A stretch of 64,000 bases of DNA from Amphiplicatus metriothermophilus (GTDB lineage Bacteria; Pseudomonadota; Alphaproteobacteria; Caulobacterales; Parvularculaceae), in NCBI RefSeq assembly GCF_900199215.1, contig NZ_FZQA01000006.1, positions 62,001-126,000 on the forward strand. Direction: 5' to 3'. Under the pieces are notes generated by a model. It was not told the origin of the DNA. It saw only the letters and a list, made by a program, of their open reading frames with translations, and did no database searches. The first letter of the stretch is position 1. Each line of letters begins with the position of its first letter. Shown here one piece after another: positions 55,548 through 64,000 of the stretch. The translations under genes were made by a program, and so were the position numbers.

Positions 55548-55673
55548 GGCCTCATCTGCCGCTTACAGCGCCGTGTAAGCGGGCCTGTCGCCGGGGGCAA
55601 GGGCCGAATTATCCAGAATTTTCAAGGGGCAAACGCCGAACATGAGCAAAAATCAAGTAAAAGGACGTTTACT

Positions 55674-55699
55674 GGGAATGATAAAATTCGTAAATTCCC
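55674..55699. promoter_or_regulatory. AT-rich dyad upstream of the acidic membrane-protein gene
   Basis: GGGAAT and ATTCCC (55674-55679 and 55694-55699) form perfect six-base arms around a 14-base AT-rich centre, within a markedly A/T-rich patch (about 55610-55700) in otherwise GC-rich DNA. It lies 78 bases before the start codon at 55777. A regulator-binding site or promoter is plausible; no bound protein is known. Confidence 0.3.
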
Positions 55700-55776
55700 G
55701 CGATGATCAGCCGTCGTCGCGTAACGGGCGCGGCGGCGCTCATCTGCAACGGGGACATCGGAAAGGGACGGGGTGC

Positions 55777-56160
55777 ATGCTTAGAATCTTGCTTATCATC
55801 GTGGTCGCGCTGGCGGTCGTGTACGGCCTGATGCGGCTTACGGGCGGCGACGGCGCCGAGAAGGCCGGGGAGGCCGCTTCGGACGCGACGGAAGCGGCGG
55901 GCGAAGCGATGGAGGACGTCGGCGATGCGCTGTCTGAATCCTCCGAGGACGTCGGCGCGGCCGTGACGGAAGCGGCGGAATCGGCCGACGAGACCATGAC
56001 CGAAATGGGTGAAGCCGCCGAAGAGGCTGTCGGCGCCATGGGCGAAGCCGCGGAAGAAGCGGCGGCGGAAGCCGATGCGGCGGCGGAAGAAGTCGAGGCC
56101 GAGGTCGAAGAGGCGGCGGAAGAGCCGACCGAGGAAGATCCGAGCAATCCGAACGGCTAG
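55777..56160 (+). CDS. Single-span membrane protein with long acidic Ala/Glu repeat
   Basis: 127 residues. The N-terminal span MLRILLIIVVALAVVYGLM is followed by about 100 residues made almost only of Ala, Glu, Asp, Gly and a few Met/Thr/Ser. They are arranged in loose 7-11 residue units (AGEAASDATEAAGEAMEDVG, then AEEAVGAMGEAAEEAAAE), ending in EEPTEEDPSNPNG. The periodicity suggests one long amphipathic, strongly acidic helix on one side of the membrane. No known family assigned; resemblance to apolipoprotein- or LEA-like helical repeats is only in composition. Start at ATG 55777 with AAAGGGACGGGG in front; an upstream ATG at 55642 is less likely. Confidence 0.68.
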   Translation: MLRILLIIVVALAVVYGLMRLTGGDGAEKAGEAASDATEAAGEAMEDVGDALSESSEDVGAAVTEAAESADETMTEMGEAAEEAVGAMGEAAEEAAAEADAAAEEVEAEVEEAAEEPTEEDPSNPNG

Positions 56161-56236: not shown

Positions 56237-56402
56237 ACGCCTGTCGGGTTGGGCCGGTTCGTCCGCACCCGGATCGCAAACCGCGAGGACGAAAATGGCC
56301 GCCGAGGGGTTTGGCTTGCGCGCCCCGTCGCGGCGCGACCGCGCGCAGGGCTTGACCTTCCCTGCGACTTACGGTCGGGTCATACGTTCAGCAGGCTGGC
56401 GT

Positions 56403-57662
56403 ATGGACGTGGACGCAGAAAACAAAAAGAATCACGGGGTCCGATCCGGCGTTTCCGGAGAGAATGGGAAGAGACGTCGCTTGGGCGGGCCGGGTTCGTT
56501 CTCGGGCACGAATCTGGAACTGGCCGGCGGACACAACCAGCGCGTCACCCTTCAGGCGATTCGCATAAACAGTCCCATCACCCGCGTCGATCTCGCCGAG
56601 ATGACGGGTCTGACCTCGCCGGCGATCGCCAACATCACCAAAAAGCTGCTCGCCGCCGGCCTGATCGAAGAAGTAGGGCGCGTGCGCGGCGGGCGAGGTC
56701 AGCCGGCGAAAATGCTCGCGATCAACCCGGACGGCTGCTTTTCCATCGGCGTCAATATCGACCGCGACCATATCACCATGGTGGCGCTCGATCTCCTTGG
56801 CCGGGTGCGGGCGCGCGCCGAGCGCGAGGCGGATTTCGCGCTTCCCGCTGCTGTCGCCAGGTTTTTTCGGCAGGAGACGAAGCGCTTTTTCGAGAAGGAA
56901 GGCGTGCCGCGCGACAAGGTGATCGGGATCGGGGTGGCGGCCCCTGACGATCTCGGCAAGGTTGAGCTGCCGCTGCGTCCGGCCAGTTACGGCGCATGGA
57001 ATGATGTCGACGTCGCAGCGCTCTTTGCGAAAATTCTTCCGCTTCCGGTTTATGTGGAGAATGACGCGACGGCTGCGGCCATCGGCGAAATGCAGTTCGG
57101 CGGCGGGCTGCAGCGGTCGAGCTTTTTCTACATTCTCGTATCCTGGGGGCTGGGGGGCGGCCTCGTGCTGGACGGCGCCTATTTCAGGGGCGCGACCGGG
57201 CGCAGCGGCGAGATAGGCTTCCTGCCGCTGCAAGGCGTTAAAACCGGCGGCCAGCTTCAGGACGTCGTGTCGCTCTCCGCGCTCCATCAGCACTTGGCCG
57301 CCAGCGGCGTCGAGGCCGCCTCGCTCAAGGATCTCGACGAGTCCGAACCGCGCATTCAGCGCGCGCTCGACGCGTGGACGAAGCTCGCCGCCAGGCAGCT
57401 TGAAGGGCCGCTCGTCGCCATCAACTGCCTCGTCAACCCTGACGCGATCCTGATCGGAGGGCGGCTTCCTCATTCAGCGGCGAGGGCGTTGACCCAGCAG
57501 CTTAACGCCGCGATCGCCCGCCGCGCGGGGGAGATTCCCGCCGTCTGCCCGGTCGAGCTTGCAGCGATCGCGGAGGACGCGCCGGCGGTGGGCGCGGCGA
57601 TTCTGCCTTTCAGCGATCTCCTGTTCCCCACCCGCGCCGCGCTCCTTAAAACGACCGTCTAG
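56403..57662 (+). CDS. ROK-family transcriptional repressor (NagC/XylR type)
   Basis: 419 residues. Residues about 59-100 are a winged HTH (ITRVDLAEMTGLTSPAIANI, then LIEEVGRVRGGRGQPAK). The rest is a ROK sugar-binding domain with VYVENDATAAAIGEMQFGGG and ILVSWGLGGGLVLDG. The zinc-binding Cys cluster found in ROK kinases is absent (the equivalent stretch reads GEIGFLPLQGVKTGGQ), so it is a sensor, not an obvious kinase. Such repressors release DNA on binding a sugar or sugar phosphate. Position at the head of the mannan genes suggests control of that operon. Start taken at ATG 56403; weaker upstream starts exist. Confidence 0.87.
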   Translation: MDVDAENKKNHGVRSGVSGENGKRRRLGGPGSFSGTNLELAGGHNQRVTLQAIRINSPITRVDLAEMTGLTSPAIANITKKLLAAGLIEEVGRVRGGRGQPAKMLAINPDGCFSIGVNIDRDHITMVALDLLGRVRARAEREADFALPAAVARFFRQETKRFFEKEGVPRDKVIGIGVAAPDDLGKVELPLRPASYGAWNDVDVAALFAKILPLPVYVENDATAAAIGEMQFGGGLQRSSFFYILVSWGLGGGLVLDGAYFRGATGRSGEIGFLPLQGVKTGGQLQDVVSLSALHQHLAASGVEAASLKDLDESEPRIQRALDAWTKLAARQLEGPLVAINCLVNPDAILIGGRLPHSAARALTQQLNAAIARRAGEIPAVCPVELAAIAEDAPAVGAAILPFSDLLFPTRAALLKTTV

Positions 57663-57702
57663 CAGGCGGGAGGGGACGGGTAGGCGGATGGCGAGCAATG
57701 GC

Positions 57703-57734
57703 CAATAGAATATCTTTTTTATTTTTTGTTATTG
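57703..57734. promoter_or_regulatory. AT-rich dyad between the two ROK genes, operator/promoter candidate
   Basis: CAATA and TATTG (57703-57707 and 57730-57734) flank a 22-base A/T-only-like core (GAATATC followed by T-rich sequence). It is the most A/T-rich stretch of the whole region. It sits 215 bases before the kinase start and 41 bases after the repressor stop. NagC-type ROK repressors use A/T-rich palindromes, so this is the best candidate for the operator and promoter of the mannan operon; not proven. Confidence 0.4.
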
Positions 57735-57949
57735 CCACCGCTGTGTGCTTTGGCGAAACTGTCGCGGCGCGGGAGGCGCGCCATGACGCAGCAAGACTGG
57801 CGGACGGGTGAAGAGGCGGCGCGGAACCGGAACGAGCGCAGGGGAACAAGGGCGGTTTGCTCGCCTAAAGGGAGACAGGCGTTCGGCGGCGCGTTGCGCG
57901 CGCGCGCGTCGGCGGGCCTCGTCGTATGTACACAAGACACGGATTGCGG

Positions 57950-58894
57950 ATGCAGATCGGGGTTGATTTCGGGGGAACGAAGATCGAGGTCGCCGCGCTC
58001 GATGCGGACGGGCGGTTTCTGGCGCGCGAGCGCGAACCGAATCCGGGAGATTACGAGGAGGCGATCGCCGCGATCCGCCGGCTTGTCGCGCGTATCGAGC
58101 GCGAGACCGGCCGGACGGGTCTGATCGGCGTCGGCGCGCCAGGGTCGATTTCGCTCCGTTCGAAAACCATGCGCAACGCCAACGCCGTGTGGCTCAACGG
58201 CCGGCGGTTTCGCGAGGATCTTTCCGCCGCGCTCGGCCGCGAAATCCGCCTCGCCAACGATGCGAACTGTCTGGCTTTATCGGAAGCCACTGACGGCGCC
58301 ACGATGGGCGCGAAGGTCGCCTTCGCGGTGATTCTCGGTACAGGCTGCGGCGGCGGGCTCACCGTGGACGGCAGACTCATCGAGGGCGCCAATCATATCG
58401 CCGGCGAGTGGGGACACATGCCGCTTCCCTGGCCGGGCGAAGATGAACTGCCGGGCTCCACGTGCTGGTGCGGCAAGCAGGGCTGCCTTGAGACCTGGAT
58501 ATCCGGCGTGGGCTTCGCTCGCGATTACGAGAGTGCGACAGGCAGGGCGCTGAAGGCCGAGGAAATCGTCGCAGCGGCCCGCAGCGGGGATGACGCGGCC
58601 GCCGCCGCGCTCGACCGTTACATCGATCGCCTCGGCCGCGCGCTCGCGGTTCTGTGCAACATCCTCGATCCCGACGTGATCGTTTTCGGCGGCGGCATGT
58701 CGAACGTCGAGGAGATCTACGAGCGCACGCCCGAAGCGATTGCACGCTATGTTTTTTCCGACGCGTTGAGGACGCGGCTCGTTCCCGCGAAGTGGGGCGA
58801 TTCGTCGGGCGTGCGCGGGGCGGCGCGGCTATGGCCGGCGCCGCGCCCTGTCGAAGCGGCCGCGCGCAGGCCGGCGGCGCAGGAGTGGCGATGA
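57950..58894 (+). CDS. ROK-family sugar kinase (fructokinase/mannokinase type)
   Basis: 314-residue ROK kinase. Phosphate-binding IGVDFGGTKIEVAALD at the N-terminus, catalytic Asp104 in LANDANCLALSE, ATP-binding VILGTGCGGGLTVDG, and the structural zinc site His156 (GEWGHMP), Cys172, Cys174 and Cys179 (CWCGKQGCLETW). Closest in layout to Mak-type fructo/mannokinases and N-acetylglucosamine kinases. In a mannan operon it probably phosphorylates mannose or glucose released by GH130 or by side enzymes. Start at ATG 57950; ATG 57926 adds eight residues. Stop overlaps the GH5 start (ATGA). Confidence 0.9.
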   Translation: MQIGVDFGGTKIEVAALDADGRFLAREREPNPGDYEEAIAAIRRLVARIERETGRTGLIGVGAPGSISLRSKTMRNANAVWLNGRRFREDLSAALGREIRLANDANCLALSEATDGATMGAKVAFAVILGTGCGGGLTVDGRLIEGANHIAGEWGHMPLPWPGEDELPGSTCWCGKQGCLETWISGVGFARDYESATGRALKAEEIVAAARSGDDAAAAALDRYIDRLGRALAVLCNILDPDVIVFGGGMSNVEEIYERTPEAIARYVFSDALRTRLVPAKWGDSSGVRGAARLWPAPRPVEAAARRPAAQEWR

Positions 58895-60264
58895 GCTTGG
58901 GCGACCTGAAGCGCATGGCCGGGCGGAGTCTGCTGGCGATCGCCGGCGCGCTGTGCTGCGCCGTCGCCGCGACGGCCGAAGAAGCGGAGCGCCCGCCCGC
59001 CGGCTTCGTCGCGGTCGAGGGGACGCAGTTCGTCGTGGACGGCGAGCCTTACCGCTTCGCCGGCGTCAATCTGTGGTATGCGGCCTATCTTGGCGCGCCG
59101 GCGGATTATGGCGACCGGGAGCGGCTCAAGAGCGAGCTCGACCGACTGCGGGCGTTAGGCGCGACCAACCTGCGTATTCTCGGCGCTTCGGAAAAGTCCC
59201 CCTTCAAACGATCGCTGTCGGAAACGTTCCGCGACCGGAGCGAGGCCTGTAACGAAACCCTGCTGCAGGGGCTCGATTACGCTCTTGCCGAGATGGAAAA
59301 GCGCGGCATGCGCGCCGTCGTCTTTCTCAACAATTTCTGGGAGTGGTCGGGGGGGATGGGGACCTACCTCTACTGGACGAACGGCGGAACCTTCGTCGAT
59401 CTCGGCGATCCGGCGCATCCCTGGTCGGCCTTTCCGAACTTCACGGCGCAATTCTATGAAAGCGCGGCGGCAAACGCTCTTTACCGGGATTATATCCGGG
59501 CCGTGGTGACGCGCACCAACACGGTGACGGGCCGGCGTTATGTAGATGATCCGACGATCATGGCCTGGCAGCTCGCCAATGAGCCGCGTCCGGCGTTCGA
59601 GGCGCGCGACGGGGACCCCCGCATGGCGGCGTTCCATGACTGGGTTCGGTTGACGGCGGCCTACATAAAATCGCTCGATCCCAACCATCTCGTTTCGACC
59701 GGCAATGAAGGCCTGATGGGCTGCAACGAAAGCGAGCATTGTTTTCTCGGCGCGCATGCGCCGCCTGAGATCGACTATCTCACCTTCCATATCTGGCCTC
59801 GCAACTGGAGCTGGTACGATCCTGCGGACCCGGAAGGAACCTTCGAGCGGACCATCGAGCGCACGAAGGACTATATGCGCCGTCACGTCGATTACGCCCG
59901 CCGGCTGGGAAAACCGGTCGTGCTCGAAGAGTTCGGCCTCGACCGCGACGGCGAAGCGCTTGCGCCGGGAACGCCGACGACCTATCGCGACGCCTATCTG
60001 CGGACCGTTTTTGAAGCCGTGGAAGCCGACGCGCGCGCCGGCGGGCCGTTCGCCGGAACCAACGTCTGGTCCTGGGGCGGGGCCGGGCGCGCCGAGCATG
60101 ACGACTTCGAATGGCGCGTCGGCGACACGCAGTTCACCGGCGACCCGCCGCAGGAGCCGCAGGGGCGCAATTCGATCTTCGACGTCGACGAGTCGACGCT
60201 CGCGCTGATAAAGGCGCATGCGGAACGATTGAGCGCGAAAGAAAAGGGCCGTTCCGCGCAATAG
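58891..60264 (+). CDS. GH5 endo-beta-1,4-mannanase, secreted
   Basis: 457 residues with a Sec signal peptide (cleavage after AATAEEA, near residue 30). The GH5 (subfamily 7-like) barrel is evident: YRFAGVNLWYAAYLGAP, LRALGATNLRILG, RAVVFLNNFWEWSGGMGTYLYW. Acid/base Glu231 is in MAWQLANEPRP, the His/Trp segment is FHIWPRNWSWYD, and the nucleophile is Glu347 in VVLEEFGLDRDG. This pattern is that of bacterial and plant/fungal endomannanases. It should cut mannan or glucomannan in the periplasm or outside. ATGA overlap with the kinase gene. Confidence 0.92.
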   Translation: MSLGDLKRMAGRSLLAIAGALCCAVAATAEEAERPPAGFVAVEGTQFVVDGEPYRFAGVNLWYAAYLGAPADYGDRERLKSELDRLRALGATNLRILGASEKSPFKRSLSETFRDRSEACNETLLQGLDYALAEMEKRGMRAVVFLNNFWEWSGGMGTYLYWTNGGTFVDLGDPAHPWSAFPNFTAQFYESAAANALYRDYIRAVVTRTNTVTGRRYVDDPTIMAWQLANEPRPAFEARDGDPRMAAFHDWVRLTAAYIKSLDPNHLVSTGNEGLMGCNESEHCFLGAHAPPEIDYLTFHIWPRNWSWYDPADPEGTFERTIERTKDYMRRHVDYARRLGKPVVLEEFGLDRDGEALAPGTPTTYRDAYLRTVFEAVEADARAGGPFAGTNVWSWGGAGRAEHDDFEWRVGDTQFTGDPPQEPQGRNSIFDVDESTLALIKAHAERLSAKEKGRSAQ

Positions 60265-60316
60265 AAACCATGACGGCGCCGCGTAAAGCGCCGCGGAAAG
60301 GGAAGGGAACCTGCTC

Positions 60317-62188
60317 GTGGGCTTGAGCGCGATCGACCTCGGCGTCATCCTCGTCTATCTGGCCGCCTCCGTCGGGCTCGGCGTCTGGGTCTCGCGCGCC
60401 GCGGCGAAGAGCACGCGCCATTACTTTCTCGGGGGCAACAAGCTGCCCTGGTACGCGCTCGGCGTGTCGAACGCCTCGGGCATGTTCGACATCTCCGGCA
60501 CCATGTGGCTGGTCCTCCTCCTCTTCGTCTTCGGCCTGAAAAGCCTGTGGATTCCCTGGCTGTGGCCGACCTTCAACCAGATTTTCCTGATGGTGTTCCT
60601 GTCGGCCTGGTTGCGCCGGTCGGGCGTGATGACGGGCGCGGAATGGATCACCTTCCGTTTCGGCGACGGACCGGGCGCGCGGCTTTCCCATCTCGTCGTG
60701 GTGGTGTTCGCCCTGGTCTCGGTGATCGGCTTCCTCGCCTACGGCTTCGTCGGGATCGGAAAGTTCGCGGCGACTTTCCTGCCGTTTCAGCTCAGCGCGG
60801 ATCCCAGGCAGAACGAGATCTTTTACGGCCTGCTCATCGTGGGGGTCACGTCGATCTACGTCATCAAGGGCGGCATGTTCAGCGTGGTGATCACCGAGGT
60901 GATGCAGTTTCTCATCATGACGGTGGCGTGCGTCGCGGTCGCGGTCATCGCCATGAACGCGGTCAGCCCGGAGATGCTCAGGGCCGCCGTGCCGGAGGGC
61001 TGGGCGAATCCGTTTTTCGGCTATGAAGTCGATCTCGACTGGAGCGAAATTCTGCCTCATGCGAACGATCTTCTGGTCAGCGAGGATTATTCGCCCTTCG
61101 CAATCTTCTTCATGCTGACCCTGTTCAAGGGCGTGATGATAAGCCTCGCGGGGCCGGCGCCGAATTACGACATGCAGCGCATCCTTTCGGCGCGCTCGCC
61201 CAGGGAGGCGGCGAAAATGAGCGCGCTCGTCAGCGTAGTGCTAAACCCGCCGCGTTATCTGCTGGTCGCGGGGCTCACCGTGCTGGCGCTCGCCTTCTTC
61301 GCGCCGACGCTGCGCGCGCAGGGGGCGGACGCCGATTTCGAGCTGATCCTGCCGTTCGCGCTCAAAAATTACGTGCCGCCGGGACTTCTTGGCCTGCTCA
61401 TCGCGGGGCTCCTCGCGGCGTTCATGTCCACCTTCGCGGCGACGGTGAACGCCGCGCCGGCCTACGTCGTGCACGACGTATATCGCCGCTATATCAATCC
61501 GAACGCGCCGGAGAAGGTCTATGTCTGGGCGAGTTACGTCACCGCCGCCGTCTTTGTCATCGTCGGCACCCTGATCGGTCTGCAGATGCCCTCGCTCAAC
61601 AAGATCATCCTGTGGATCGTAAGCGCGCTGTGGGGCGGCTATGCGGCGGCGAACGTGCTCAAATGGTACTGGTGGCGCTTCAATGGCTACGGCTATTTCT
61701 GGGGCATGGCGGTGGGGGTCGCCGGCGCGCTGTGGCTCGCCAATCAGCCGAACGTCTCCGCGCTCTATGCGTTTCCGGCGATGTTCGCGCTGACGGTTCT
61801 CGCCTGCGTGCTCGGCGCCAGGCTTACCCCGCCGACCGATATGGAGACGCTGATGAAGTTTTATGAGCGCACGCGGCCCTGGGGCTTCTGGGGCCCGGTG
61901 CGCCGCGCGCTCGACGCCAAAGGAACTCCTGTCGCGCCCAATCGGGACTTCGCGCGCGACATGTTCAACGTCGCGGTCGGGATCGTCTGGCAGACCGCGC
62001 TCGTCGCCGCGCCGGTCTATCTCGTGATCCGCGATATGACGGGCATGTGGATCGCGCTGGCGATCGCGGCGGCCGGCACGGTCATTCTCAAGTTCACCTG
62101 GTACGATCATTTGAAGGACGCGCCGGACGACGCCCCGGCGGGAAAGCGCGCCGGCGCGCCGACCGCCGCGAAAGGAGCGGCCTTGTGA
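60317..62188 (+). CDS. Sodium:solute symporter of the mannan operon
   Basis: 623-residue SSS-family transporter with about 13-14 spans. The family segments YFLGGNKLPWYALGVSNASGMFDISGTMW, FRFGDGPGARLSHLVVV and GLLGLLIAGLLAAFMSTFAATVNAAPAYVVHDVYRR are clear; the last one carries the Ser/Thr residues of the Na2 site. It belongs to the SGLT/sialic-acid-like sugar branch rather than the acetate branch. Genomic position between two mannanases suggests uptake of mannose or short manno-oligosaccharides by sodium symport. GTG start at 60317 with AAGGGAAGGGAA; GTGA overlap with the GH26 gene. Confidence 0.9.
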   Translation: MGLSAIDLGVILVYLAASVGLGVWVSRAAAKSTRHYFLGGNKLPWYALGVSNASGMFDISGTMWLVLLLFVFGLKSLWIPWLWPTFNQIFLMVFLSAWLRRSGVMTGAEWITFRFGDGPGARLSHLVVVVFALVSVIGFLAYGFVGIGKFAATFLPFQLSADPRQNEIFYGLLIVGVTSIYVIKGGMFSVVITEVMQFLIMTVACVAVAVIAMNAVSPEMLRAAVPEGWANPFFGYEVDLDWSEILPHANDLLVSEDYSPFAIFFMLTLFKGVMISLAGPAPNYDMQRILSARSPREAAKMSALVSVVLNPPRYLLVAGLTVLALAFFAPTLRAQGADADFELILPFALKNYVPPGLLGLLIAGLLAAFMSTFAATVNAAPAYVVHDVYRRYINPNAPEKVYVWASYVTAAVFVIVGTLIGLQMPSLNKIILWIVSALWGGYAAANVLKWYWWRFNGYGYFWGMAVGVAGALWLANQPNVSALYAFPAMFALTVLACVLGARLTPPTDMETLMKFYERTRPWGFWGPVRRALDAKGTPVAPNRDFARDMFNVAVGIVWQTALVAAPVYLVIRDMTGMWIALAIAAAGTVILKFTWYDHLKDAPDDAPAGKRAGAPTAAKGAAL

Positions 62189-63288
62189 GTTTGCGCCGAA
62201 CGATCGCCGCCTTTCTGGCGTTCGCCGCGGCCGCCTGCGCGGCGCCGGCGGACCGTCCGGCCTCTGCGCGGGCGGATTACGGCCAGAGCCGCGCCGCGCT
62301 CCTTGCGCTGCTTGAGAAGACGGCGCGGGAGGGCAAATCTCTCTCCGGCCAGCAGGTCAACGAGTACGAGGTCTTCATTCGCTGCACTTCTTTCGAGCGA
62401 ATCCATGAGCTTGTCGGGGCGTGGCCGGCGATCCTGGGCCTCGAGCTCATGTTCATCATCGAAAATCCTTCCTATAAGGACTACTTCCTGGCCCGCGCGC
62501 GCGACCATGCCGCGCGCGGCGGAATCGTCGCGATCACCTGGCATGCGCGGAACCCGATCCGGGTATGCCCGCGCGGGGAGTATTATCGTTGCTCGCAGAC
62601 GCCGATGAGCGAGGAGGAGCTTGCGCGTCTTCTCGATCCGTCAACGAAGGAGCACGCGCTGTGGGCGCGCGACGTCGACGCCGTCGCCGGAGTTCTCAAG
62701 GAAATGCAGGCGATGGGAATCGCGCCGATCTTTCGGCCCTATCATGAGATGAACGGCGGCTGGTTCTGGTGGGGGCGGAAGGATGACTTCCCGCGGTTGT
62801 GGCGGATGCTGCGCGAGCGCCTCGCCGAAACCCACGGCCTTTCGGAGCTCGTCTGGGTCTGGTCGTCCGACAAGGGGTCCGAGGACGCGGCGAAGTATTA
62901 TCCGGGCGACGATTATGTCGACGTCGTCGGCGCCGACATTTATACGGAAGATCGTGACGGCCCCATGTACGAAACGGCGAAAAGCAACATCGCCCCGCTT
63001 CATTCGTCCGGTCTGTTCGCATTCGCCGAGATCGGACTATTGCCGAATGCGGAGATATTCCGGAGCGTGAGGCCCGTCTGGTTCCTGTTATGGGGCGGGG
63101 AGTTCATCGACAAACGATGGGCGCCGGAGCCCTGCGCGCTGTGCAACGAGGCGGAGGATGTCGCCGCCGTTTATGCGCTCGAGGAGACTCTCGCCCTGCA
63201 TGAGGTCGACTGGCCGCCGGCCGCGCGGCTCGATCCCGATTCGCGGCGCGCGCCTGCGGCGGCGCGCTGCCCGGCGAGCCTGTTGTGA
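62185..63288 (+). CDS. GH26 beta-mannanase lipoprotein
   Basis: 367 residues. Lipoprotein signal with Cys18 in [10 protein letters not shown], so probably anchored to the inner face of the outer membrane or the cell surface. GH26 motifs: [21 protein letters not shown], acid/base Glu188 in [43 protein letters not shown], and nucleophile Glu282 in FAEIGLL. GH26 enzymes split beta-1,4-mannan to mannobiose or short oligomers. With the GH5 enzyme it gives two independent mannanase folds in one operon. GTG start overlaps the symporter stop; ribosome site AAAGGAG. Confidence 0.94.
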
Positions 63289-63317
63289 GTGAGGGCGCGT
63301 CTGCGTACGGAGCGGTT

Positions 63318-64000
63318 ATGACGAGCATGTTCGAGACCCGCATTAGGCGACTGAAGGAAGCGCAGGAAGCGCTTTTCGTGCGCAAAAACGCGCCGGTCGA
63401 AGGCGGAAACGGCGTGTTCGAGCGCTGGCGCGATCCGGTGCTGACCGCCGCGCATGTTCCCCTGCACTGGCGTTACGACCTCGATCCGAAGACCAACCCG
63501 CACGGCATGGAGCGACTCGGCGTCAACGCCGTCTTCAATCCGGGCGCGATCAAGATGGACGGGCGCTACGCGCTGGTCGCGCGCGTGGAAGGCGTCGACC
63601 GAAAATCCTTCTTCGCCGTGGCGGAAAGCGCAAGCGGCGTCGACGGCTTCCGCTTCCGCGAGCTGCCGATCGATTTGCCCGAGACTGAAGAGCCGGCGAC
63701 GAACGTTTACGACATGCGGCTGACGCGCCATGAGGACGGCTGGATCTACGGGCTCTTTTGCGTCGAGCGCCATGACGACAGCCGGCCGCGCGATCCTTCC
63801 GCCGCGGTCGCGCAGTGCGGCGTGGCGCGCACCCGCGACCTCGACCGGTGGGAGCGGCTCGCGGACGTCGTCACGCCGGCTTCGCAGCAGCGCAACGTCG
63901 TTCTGCACCCGGAATTCGTGGACGGGCGTTATCTCCTCTACACGCGCCCGCAGGACGGTTTCATCGACGCGGGCTCCGGCGGCGGGCTCGCCTGGGGGCT
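63318..64000 (+). CDS. mgp: GH130 4-O-beta-D-mannosyl-D-glucose phosphorylase (3'-partial)
   Basis: First 227 residues; the gene runs off the right edge. The conserved GH130 subfamily 1 stretches are [59 protein letters not shown] and the catalytic-acid segment [17 protein letters not shown] (Asp132). Later come [29 protein letters not shown]. This matches mannosylglucose phosphorylase (MGP) of Bacteroides type very closely, more than mannobiose phosphorylases. The enzyme uses phosphate to split Man-beta-1,4-Glc to mannose 1-phosphate and glucose in the cytoplasm. Its pathway partner, cellobiose/mannobiose 2-epimerase, would be expected just downstream. Start ATG 63318 with GGAG. Confidence 0.94.

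What the first reader, a model, noticed from the sequence alone, without database searches (positions are those of the whole stretch)
56403..64000. Compact mannan-utilisation operon built around an SSS transporter and a mannosylglucose phosphorylase
Two ROK proteins, GH5 and GH26 mannanases, a sodium symporter and GH130-1 phosphorylase form one overlapping operon. The Man-Glc phosphorylase implies either glucomannan as substrate or a 2-epimerase in the next genes. Known loci of this kind in Bacteroidetes use SusCD and an MFS transporter. Here no TonB receptor is seen inside the window and the only transporter is an SSS protein, not known to me as a manno-oligosaccharide carrier.
Basis: partly seen in the sequence, partly recalled or inferred. 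Interest (0 to 1): 0.62.

Follow-up and report, generated by a model that had tools for sequence, protein, structure and literature searches.

The report
Bacterial glucomannan-eating operon with sodium symporter
This is a complete-looking set of genes with which an alphaproteobacterium probably eats glucomannan by a known pathway, and its sodium-driven importer belongs to a widespread transporter group, of unproven substrate, that most likely carries mannose-containing disaccharides.

Summary
Beyond the window GH130 is completed and followed by a cellobiose 2-epimerase, an aldo/keto reductase and two GH3 genes. So this is the known 2-epimerase / mannosylglucose phosphorylase (MGP) pathway of Bacteroides and Cellvibrio. 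Two corrections. The GH5 is closest to exo-mannosidases, not endo-mannanases. And the SSS symporter is no oddity of this genome: in its family, SSS and MGP occur in the same 5 of 62 genomes; of the 80 closest SSS relatives fetched, 42 have an MGP in the fetched DNA (up to 10 kb each side), in eight named phyla including Bacteroidota, and 27 of those 42 are a contiguous SSS-MGP-epimerase cassette. The SSS is therefore most likely a Na+-coupled carrier of mannobiose / Man-Glc, perhaps of gluco-disaccharides too; inferred, not shown: 11 of 26 SSS genomes without linked mannan genes have no MGP at all. The missing TonB receptor is real: none in or near the operon, and no ortholog of receptors linked to such cassettes elsewhere among 30 of this genome's 35 receptor matches. 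Ordinary pathway; the transporter assignment is the testable novelty.

The parts
56403..57662 (+). ROK-family transcriptional regulator with winged helix (NagC/Mlc-like); an in-frame earlier start exists at 56295
   Evidence: Pfam ROK 5.3e-24 plus HTH_24 9.8e-06; 54% identical regulator sits at the end of the same cluster in G009 and G010, absent from the other 3 of 5 relative loci
57704..57736 (.). AT-rich tract between regulator and kinase, candidate operator/promoter region (weak)
   Evidence: read by eye; an AT-rich stretch also lies before the first operon gene of L043 and L044; no statistical test made
57950..58894 (+). ROK sugar kinase, E. coli Mak (manno/fructokinase)-like
   Evidence: NCBIfam PRK09557 6e-118, 393.6 bits, below its 443-bit cut-off; 'Mak' is a recalled name
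58891..60264 (+). GH5 exo-beta-mannosidase, probably exported (signal-peptide-like N-terminus, by eye)
   Evidence: phmmer to Man5A 1UUQ 1.7e-131, exo-mannosidase 4LYP 4.2e-71; N-terminus
60317..62188 (+). SSS-family (TC 2.A.21) sodium:solute symporter, 623 aa, proposed Na+/mannobiose-ManGlc symporter
   Evidence: Pfam SSF 2e-30; profile match to vSGLT 9.5e-25; AlphaFold2 pLDDT 86, top Foldseek ranks SGLT1/SGLT2
62185..63288 (+). GH26 beta-mannanase, probably exported, possible lipoprotein (by eye); the only PF02156 match of the genome
   Evidence: Pfam 6.8e-45; best PDB 3ZM8 endo-mannanase 2.4e-38; single copy
63285..64000 (+). GH130 mannosylglucose phosphorylase, first 238 codons; the gene ends at 64508 outside the window, followed by cellobiose 2-epimerase 64505-65704, aldo/keto reductase 65701-66570, GH3 66577-69033 and GH3 69088-71631 (window numbering continued through L003)
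   Evidence: 3WAS 2.7e-175, 5AY9 2.1e-157; downstream genes

Best explanation
A beta-1,4-(gluco)mannan catabolic operon of the 2-epimerase / mannosylglucose phosphorylase type. Exported GH26 cuts the polymer; exported GH5 exo-mannosidase and one exported GH3 trim the oligosaccharides; mannobiose and Man-Glc (and some free hexose) cross the inner membrane with sodium through the SSS symporter; in the cytoplasm the epimerase turns Man-Man into Man-Glc, GH130 phosphorolyses Man-Glc to mannose-1-phosphate and glucose, the second GH3 (no signal peptide seen) splits gluco-disaccharides, and the ROK kinase phosphorylates free hexose. Man-1-P enters glycolysis through a phosphomannomutase and the AGE-type domain fused to ManC. 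The ROK regulator controls the operon in answer to a sugar. Shown by sequence: gene content, order, families, conserved linkage. Inferred: every activity, localisation, the transported solute, regulation. Outer-membrane entry is unsolved: no linked TonB receptor; porin diffusion of disaccharides or a receptor encoded elsewhere.
For: MGP: 3WAS 2.7e-175, 5AY9 2.1e-157, Asp131 of 3WAS (catalytic, recalled) kept. Epimerase: NCBIfam EpiA 5.3e-117, RmCE 3WKF 2.8e-89, its His200, His259, His390 (catalytic, recalled) kept. GH5 and GH26. SSS and MGP are in the same 5 of 62 family genomes, with equal copy number (one each in G000, G009, G010, G057, whose two SSS matches are pieces of one open frame; two each in G050); identical sets by chance 1.5e-7 if genomes were independent (printed), which they are not. 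5 of 5 relative loci in the four other genomes have MGP, epimerase and GH5 beside the SSS. 42 of 80 named SSS loci have MGP in the fetched DNA, 27 of 42 contiguous SSS-MGP-epimerase. 15 of 26 SSS loci without any of GH130, epimerase, GH26 or GH5 nearby lie in genomes with an MGP elsewhere. SGLT-like fold and sodium-site Ala368/Ser371/Thr372 aligned to vSGLT Ala361/Ser364/Ser365 (site residues recalled). Genome holds two PGM/PMM-family proteins and a ManC-AGE fusion.
Against: No experiment here, and none found, on any member of this SSS subfamily. 11 of 26 SSS genomes tested have no MGP match (many are draft or metagenome genomes), among them three Hyphomonas genomes where, of the genes searched for, SSS is next to GH3 only. 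Only 16 of 80 SSS loci have a GH26 hit and 23 of 80 a GH5 hit. vSGLT sugar-site residues Lys294 and Gln428 (recalled) are not matched in the profile alignment, and by VIA-align the top solved fold is the choline transporter CHT1 (Z 29.3), just above SGLT2 (28.1), so fold does not settle the solute. Phosphomannose isomerase families PF01238, PF20511, PF01050 gave no match (they rang in 2, 7 and 10 of 14 control genomes). No TonB receptor linked. Epimerase and kinase score below their NCBIfam cut-offs. The locus is patchy: none of the 8 other genomes of the genus has it.
Confidence: 0.72

Rival explanations
1. The SSS protein imports free mannose (or glucose) made in the periplasm by the GH5 exo-mannosidase, and the ROK kinase phosphorylates it; the MGP-epimerase branch handles disaccharides that enter by some other carrier.
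For: GH5 is an exo-mannosidase type, a Mak-like kinase is in the operon, known sugar members of the family move monosaccharides, and a review names a putative SSS mannose carrier, ManPII, of Shewanella (PMC7918813, passages; the Shewanella paper PMC2996990 itself, in the passages seen, puts ManP in the GGP family).
Against: The SSS is the only transporter gene in the operon while MGP and epimerase look cytoplasmic and need disaccharide. The conserved partner of the SSS is MGP, not the kinase: the kinase has no hit in 5 of 5 relative loci and only 29-30% hits in 2 of 80 loci.
Confidence: 0.2
2. The SSS is a general carrier of beta-1,4-linked gluco- and manno-disaccharides (cellobiose included), recruited into mannan operons and into beta-glucan loci. 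This overlaps with the best explanation rather than excluding it.
For: Four alphaproteobacterial loci (L049 and the Hyphomonas loci L067, L068, L070) have SSS directly before a GH3 and none of GH130, epimerase, GH26 or GH5 in the fetched DNA, and no MGP match in the genome; the window operon has two GH3 genes; S. copri EpiA acts on mannobiose, cellobiose and Man-Glc (PMC12704710, passages).
Against: Linkage to MGP dominates in the Proteobacteria clade of the tree (29 of 36 rows), and a fourth Hyphomonas locus, L056, has MGP, epimerase, GH5 and GH26.
Confidence: 0.35
3. The locus serves another beta-mannoside (for example N-glycan Man-GlcNAc or beta-1,2-mannan).
For: GH130 family also holds such phosphorylases (one search lists beta-1,2 types; the table a Man-GlcNAc one).
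Against: MGP structures score 2.1e-157 or better, the other GH130 chains 8.3e-26 or worse; GH26, GH5 and the epimerase point to beta-1,4-mannan.
Confidence: 0.03

Closest known systems
Cellvibrio mannan cluster (Man5A exo-mannosidase, EpiA epimerase, UnkA/CvMGP)
   Same: Same enzyme trio; the window GH5 is closest to Man5A; 4 of 4 Cellvibrio or Cellvibrionaceae loci checked by name (L060, L066, L071, L076) carry contiguous SSS-MGP-epimerase, 3 of these 4 with a GH5 hit.
   Different: GH26, AKR, two GH3 and ROK genes here; no GH27 found here. CvMGP/UnkA and the EpiA reassignment were seen as table and reference entries in PMC8950772; the cluster's layout in print is recalled, not read.
Bacteroides ovatus/fragilis mannan PUL (isomerase-symporter-phosphorylase, GH26)
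   Same: GH26, isomerase/epimerase, MGP and a symporter (PMC5217682, passages); import of mannobiose assigned to the symporter (PMC8002723, passage).
   Different: Those have SusC/SusD-like proteins, an HTCS regulator and GH36; the family of their symporter is not stated in the passages read and I could not test it.
Muricauda sp. [quoted passage not shown]
   Same: GH26 enzymes, GH130, epimerase, and a PUL symporter said to carry manno- and manno-gluco-disaccharides (PMC9860051, passages).
   Different: Two SusC/D pairs (PMC6298971, passage), GH27, GH5_26 glucanase, AraC-type regulator.
Aquisalinus flavus and relatives (Parvularculaceae)
   Same: GH3-SSS-GH26-MGP-epimerase-AKR-GH5-ROK regulator in one run (L043, and L044 = L062).
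   Different: Order permuted: GH3 first, regulator last; no ROK kinase hit.
SGLT/vSGLT sodium-sugar symporters
   Same: Fold and sodium-site positions.
   Different: About 17-21% identity to SGLT rows; sugar-site residues of vSGLT not matched.

Membership tests
2-epimerase / MGP mannan catabolic pathway (Senoura type) | GH130 mannosylglucose phosphorylase | tested here: met
   3WAS 2.7e-175, 5AY9 2.1e-157, next chain 8.3e-26
2-epimerase / MGP mannan catabolic pathway (Senoura type) | cellobiose/mannobiose 2-epimerase in the operon | tested here: met
   next gene; RmCE 3WKF 2.8e-89; EpiA model 391 bits, below its 800-bit equivalog cut-off
2-epimerase / MGP mannan catabolic pathway (Senoura type) | beta-1,4-mannanase | tested here: met
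   GH26, best solved relatives named endo-mannanases; activity untested
2-epimerase / MGP mannan catabolic pathway (Senoura type) | inner-membrane carrier of mannobiose | tested here: inconclusive
   SSS linked to MGP; solute unknown
2-epimerase / MGP mannan catabolic pathway (Senoura type) | enzyme activities and growth on mannan | not testable with these tools
   needs bench work
SSS family (TC 2.A.21) | SSF domain and SGLT-like fold | tested here: met
   SSF 106.5 bits, cut-off 22.8; SGLT1/2 top Foldseek ranks, E 1.8e-16; CHT1 and SGLT2 top by VIA-align, Z 29.3 and 28.1
SSS family (TC 2.A.21) | Na2 sodium-site residues | tested here: met
   Ala368, Ser371, Thr372 align with vSGLT Ala361, Ser364, Ser365 (the vSGLT site is recalled, positions counted by hand)
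SSS family (TC 2.A.21) | sodium-coupled transport | not testable with these tools
   needs uptake assay
Bacteroidota-type PUL | linked SusC/TonB receptor | tested here: not met
   no PF00593 in the window or L003 stretch, none by tblastn in L003
Bacteroidota-type PUL | linked SusD | not tested
   SusD families were not searched for
Man5A-type GH5 exo-mannosidase | closest to exo-mannosidases rather than endo-mannanases | tested here: met
   442 and 243 bits against 128 bits for the best endo-mannanase

The most novel reading that the evidence does not exclude
The window's symporter belongs to an uncharacterised SSS subfamily of Na+-coupled beta-1,4-manno-(gluco-)disaccharide carriers that is linked to MGP in eight named phyla, as a contiguous SSS-MGP-epimerase cassette in five of them, and that may be the commonest solution to mannobiose import outside gut Bacteroides; in this genome it works without a linked TonB receptor.
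Probability: 0.55. Interest if true: 0.5.

Novelty: new member of a known kind. Interest (0 to 1): 0.38.

Why it matters
The passages I read on beta-mannan loci leave the inner-membrane step to a symporter of unstated family or do not name the carrier, and in a 2021 review of prokaryotic SSS transporters the words 'disaccharide' and 'oligosaccharide' do not occur in the main text (PMC7918813, word count). The conserved SSS-MGP-epimerase cassette gives a concrete, easily tested candidate for that step across phyla, and a substrate prediction for a large group of unassigned SSS proteins.

Tried and rejected
Endo-mannanase reading of the GH5: rejected, exo-mannosidases score far higher. A TonB receptor just past the window edge: rejected, none in the next 18 kb (L003); the operon runs into two GH3 genes and then an opposite-strand gene that looks like proC by eye. 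A trans-encoded ortholog of the linked receptors: 13 receptor sequences from SSS loci (11 from MGP loci, namely L042 and 10 of the 11; L103 and L104 have no MGP nearby) were compared with 30 of the 35 own PF00593 matches (some matches are pieces of one gene). Eight of the 13 (L042, L051, L053, L063, L069, L072, L075, L104) resemble each other at over 250 bits in most pairs (for example L069-L075 67% over 1,037 residues, L042-L053 45% over 1,046), while the best summed score of any of the 13 in this genome is 272 bits. So no clear candidate; the five weakest own matches were not compared, and L050, L058, L085 and L103 show no tie over 250 bits to the other receptors either. Missing phosphomannose isomerase as a fatal gap: rejected, an AGE domain fused to ManC exists, though its activity is inferred. 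Operator for the ROK regulator: only an AT-rich tract; my palindrome scan found none in that gap, the repeat finder one 11-nt imperfect inverted repeat at 57761-57787 and short CG palindromes; promoter and terminator matches at or below chance (1 against 1.0, 5 against 7.4). Horizontal gain judged from G+C: operon 66.9% against 66.3% for the window, uninformative. Rfam (gathering threshold) and tRNA scans of the window: nothing. Papers: ten searches showed me no experimental study of an SSS mannobiose carrier in the titles and abstracts listed; not every listed paper was opened and most subscription papers are not held, so this is no proof of absence.

Rows dropped: of the 80 SSS loci, 6 with a distant GH130 and 6 with only an epimerase hit were not tested for MGP elsewhere in their genomes (one search took the 26 with none). 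L062 (Aquisalinus flavus) is the same locus as L044, so it counts both in the family set and in the 80. The alignment for structure prediction used 59 sequences: the window's and 58 of the 80. TonB receptors were sought with proteobacterial queries, which may miss SusC types. Epimerase counts include a few weak hits (25-33%). Several of the 80 loci are short contigs with little flank.
Full report
What was checked. The window is G000:C13:62001-126000 of a 3.16 Mb, 18-contig genome estimated 98.4% complete. G009 of the same family has the Aquisalinus flavus locus (its SSS is identical to that of L062), so this is most likely a Parvularculaceae alphaproteobacterium (taxonomy of Aquisalinus); the organism itself is not named to me.

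What lies beyond the edge. L003 carries the contig on (window position = L003 position + 61999; overlap identical). GH130 ends at 64508; then come cellobiose 2-epimerase (64505-65704), aldo/keto reductase (65701-66570), a GH3 without a signal peptide (66577-69033), a GH3 with a lipoprotein-like start (69088-71631), and an opposite-strand gene resembling proC (the last label and all signal-peptide statements are by eye).

Enzymes. GH130 aligns over nearly its whole length with B. fragilis MGP (2.7e-175) and R. albus MGP (2.1e-157), all other GH130 chains being at 8.3e-26 or worse. The epimerase aligns with solved cellobiose 2-epimerases (best 2.0e-89 and 2.8e-89) with the histidines I recall as catalytic kept. 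The GH5 aligns with Man5A (1.7e-131) and another exo-mannosidase (about 1e-70) before any endo-mannanase (4.1e-36). The GH26 is closest to endo-mannanases and is the only PF02156 match of the genome. No GH27 match (PF16499) was found (GH36 not searched), so galactomannan is a less likely substrate here, whereas G057 has a GH27 and a GDSL esterase in its version of the locus.

From Man-1-P to glycolysis. The isomerase families PF01238, PF20511 and PF01050 gave no match (the same searches rang in 2, 7 and 10 of 14 control genomes). A 742-residue protein on C6 has a nucleotidyltransferase, a ManC beta-helix and a C-terminal AGE-superfamily domain; I recall that rhizobial phosphomannose isomerases are of this superfamily, so it is the likely isomerase. 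Two PGM/PMM-family proteins exist; by eye one is GlmM-like and the other a phosphomannomutase type.

The symporter. It is a 623-residue SSF protein with an SGLT-like predicted fold (pLDDT 86; Foldseek top ranks SGLT1/SGLT2; by VIA-align CHT1 at Z 29.3 stands just above SGLT2 at 28.1) and sodium-site residues in place, but no close solved relative (1.2e-12 to vSGLT by sequence). Linkage is the strong evidence. In the family, 5 of 62 genomes have it and 5 of 62 have MGP, the same five (42 of the 62 are at least 90% complete); none of the 8 other genomes of the genus has either. In the other four genomes 5 of 5 loci carry MGP, epimerase and GH5 beside it; GH26 is in 4 of these 5, GH3 in 4 of 5, a close AKR (48-60%) in 3 of 5, the ROK regulator in 2 of 5, the ROK kinase in 0 of 5. 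Among the 80 best of at least 571 relatives in a one-genome-per-species collection, 42 have an MGP of over 50% identity in the fetched DNA and 38 of these an epimerase hit; 31 of 42 have MGP directly after SSS on the same strand and 27 of 42 the epimerase directly after that. The 42 are Gammaproteobacteria 20, Bacteroidota 6, Acidobacteriota 5, Alphaproteobacteria 3, Gemmatimonadota 2, Ignavibacteriota 2, Rhodothermota 1, Calditrichota 1, Kryptoniota 1, unplaced 1; the contiguous 27 are from Pseudomonadota, Bacteroidota, Rhodothermota, Gemmatimonadota and Ignavibacteriota. The 80 were chosen by likeness to the query, so these shares are not those of the whole family.

Against a strict mannobiose-only role: 26 of 80 loci have none of GH130, epimerase, GH26 or GH5 in the fetched DNA (several are short contigs); 15 of these 26 genomes do hold an MGP elsewhere, 11 do not. 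In the tree (quick method, 87 rows) the MGP label needs 17 changes against a shuffled mean of 28.9: clustered, but not one clade. The window SSS lies in a Proteobacteria group of 36 rows, 29 with MGP. Three of four Hyphomonas loci, and L049, show SSS with GH3 alone among the genes searched for. A carrier for beta-1,4 manno- and perhaps gluco-disaccharides fits all of this best.

Outer membrane. No TonB receptor is linked. The genome has 35 PF00593 matches, some of them pieces of one gene, the only one on this contig about 80 kb before the SSS gene. In one relative, G050, a receptor and a second protein (which I recall as tryptophan-halogenase-like) directly precede the same cassette (L042), and 11 of 42 MGP loci show a receptor in the fetched DNA. 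Eight of 13 receptors taken from SSS loci resemble each other, but none of the 30 own receptor matches compared is nearly as close to them. Since the exported enzymes can produce disaccharides and monosaccharides, diffusion through porins is possible; this is inference.

Literature (passages only, unless said otherwise). The pathway is known: MGPs of B. fragilis, R. albus, Cellvibrio vulgaris, Rhodothermus and Roseburia are tabulated in PMC8950772; S. copri EpiA was assayed, and the inner-membrane carrier is not named in the passages seen (PMC12704710); Bacteroides and Muricauda papers assign import to a 'symporter' (PMC5217682, PMC8002723, PMC9860051). The Shewanella survey PMC2996990 predicts mannoside permeases ManPI and ManPII, the ManP permease being put in the GGP family, while the SSS review calls ManPII a putative SSS mannose carrier still to be tested (PMC7918813). 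I found no assay of an SSS disaccharide carrier in the listings of the ten searches made.

Verdict. The locus is an alphaproteobacterial member of a known pathway. The useful residue is a specific, cross-phylum prediction for an unassigned transporter group.

Noticed in passing
L130:1468-3696 (G000:C6 near 314212-315210): ManC-type nucleotidyltransferase fused to an AGE-superfamily domain in a genome without matches to PF01238, PF20511 and PF01050; candidate fused GDP-mannose pyrophosphorylase / AGE-type phosphomannose isomerase.
   Followed up: partly
L046:9310-15826 (G000:C15:79309-85825): A distant SSS paralogue sits beside a GH43 gene and a TonB receptor whose barrel matches come as two pieces in different open frames, so possibly a frameshifted or mis-assembled receptor.
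   Followed up: no
window 55642-56160: 172-residue protein rich in Ala and Glu with no Pfam match, just before the ROK regulator.
   Followed up: no
L041 and L042 (G050): One relative carries two separate SSS-MGP-epimerase cassettes, one with a GntP permease nearby, the other with a TonB receptor and a regulator that looks LacI-like by eye.
   Followed up: partly
L003:3702-4571 (window numbering 65701-66570): Aldo/keto reductase overlapping the epimerase gene, kept in the same cluster in L041, L043 and L044 (48-60% identity); its role in mannan use is unexplained.
   Followed up: no
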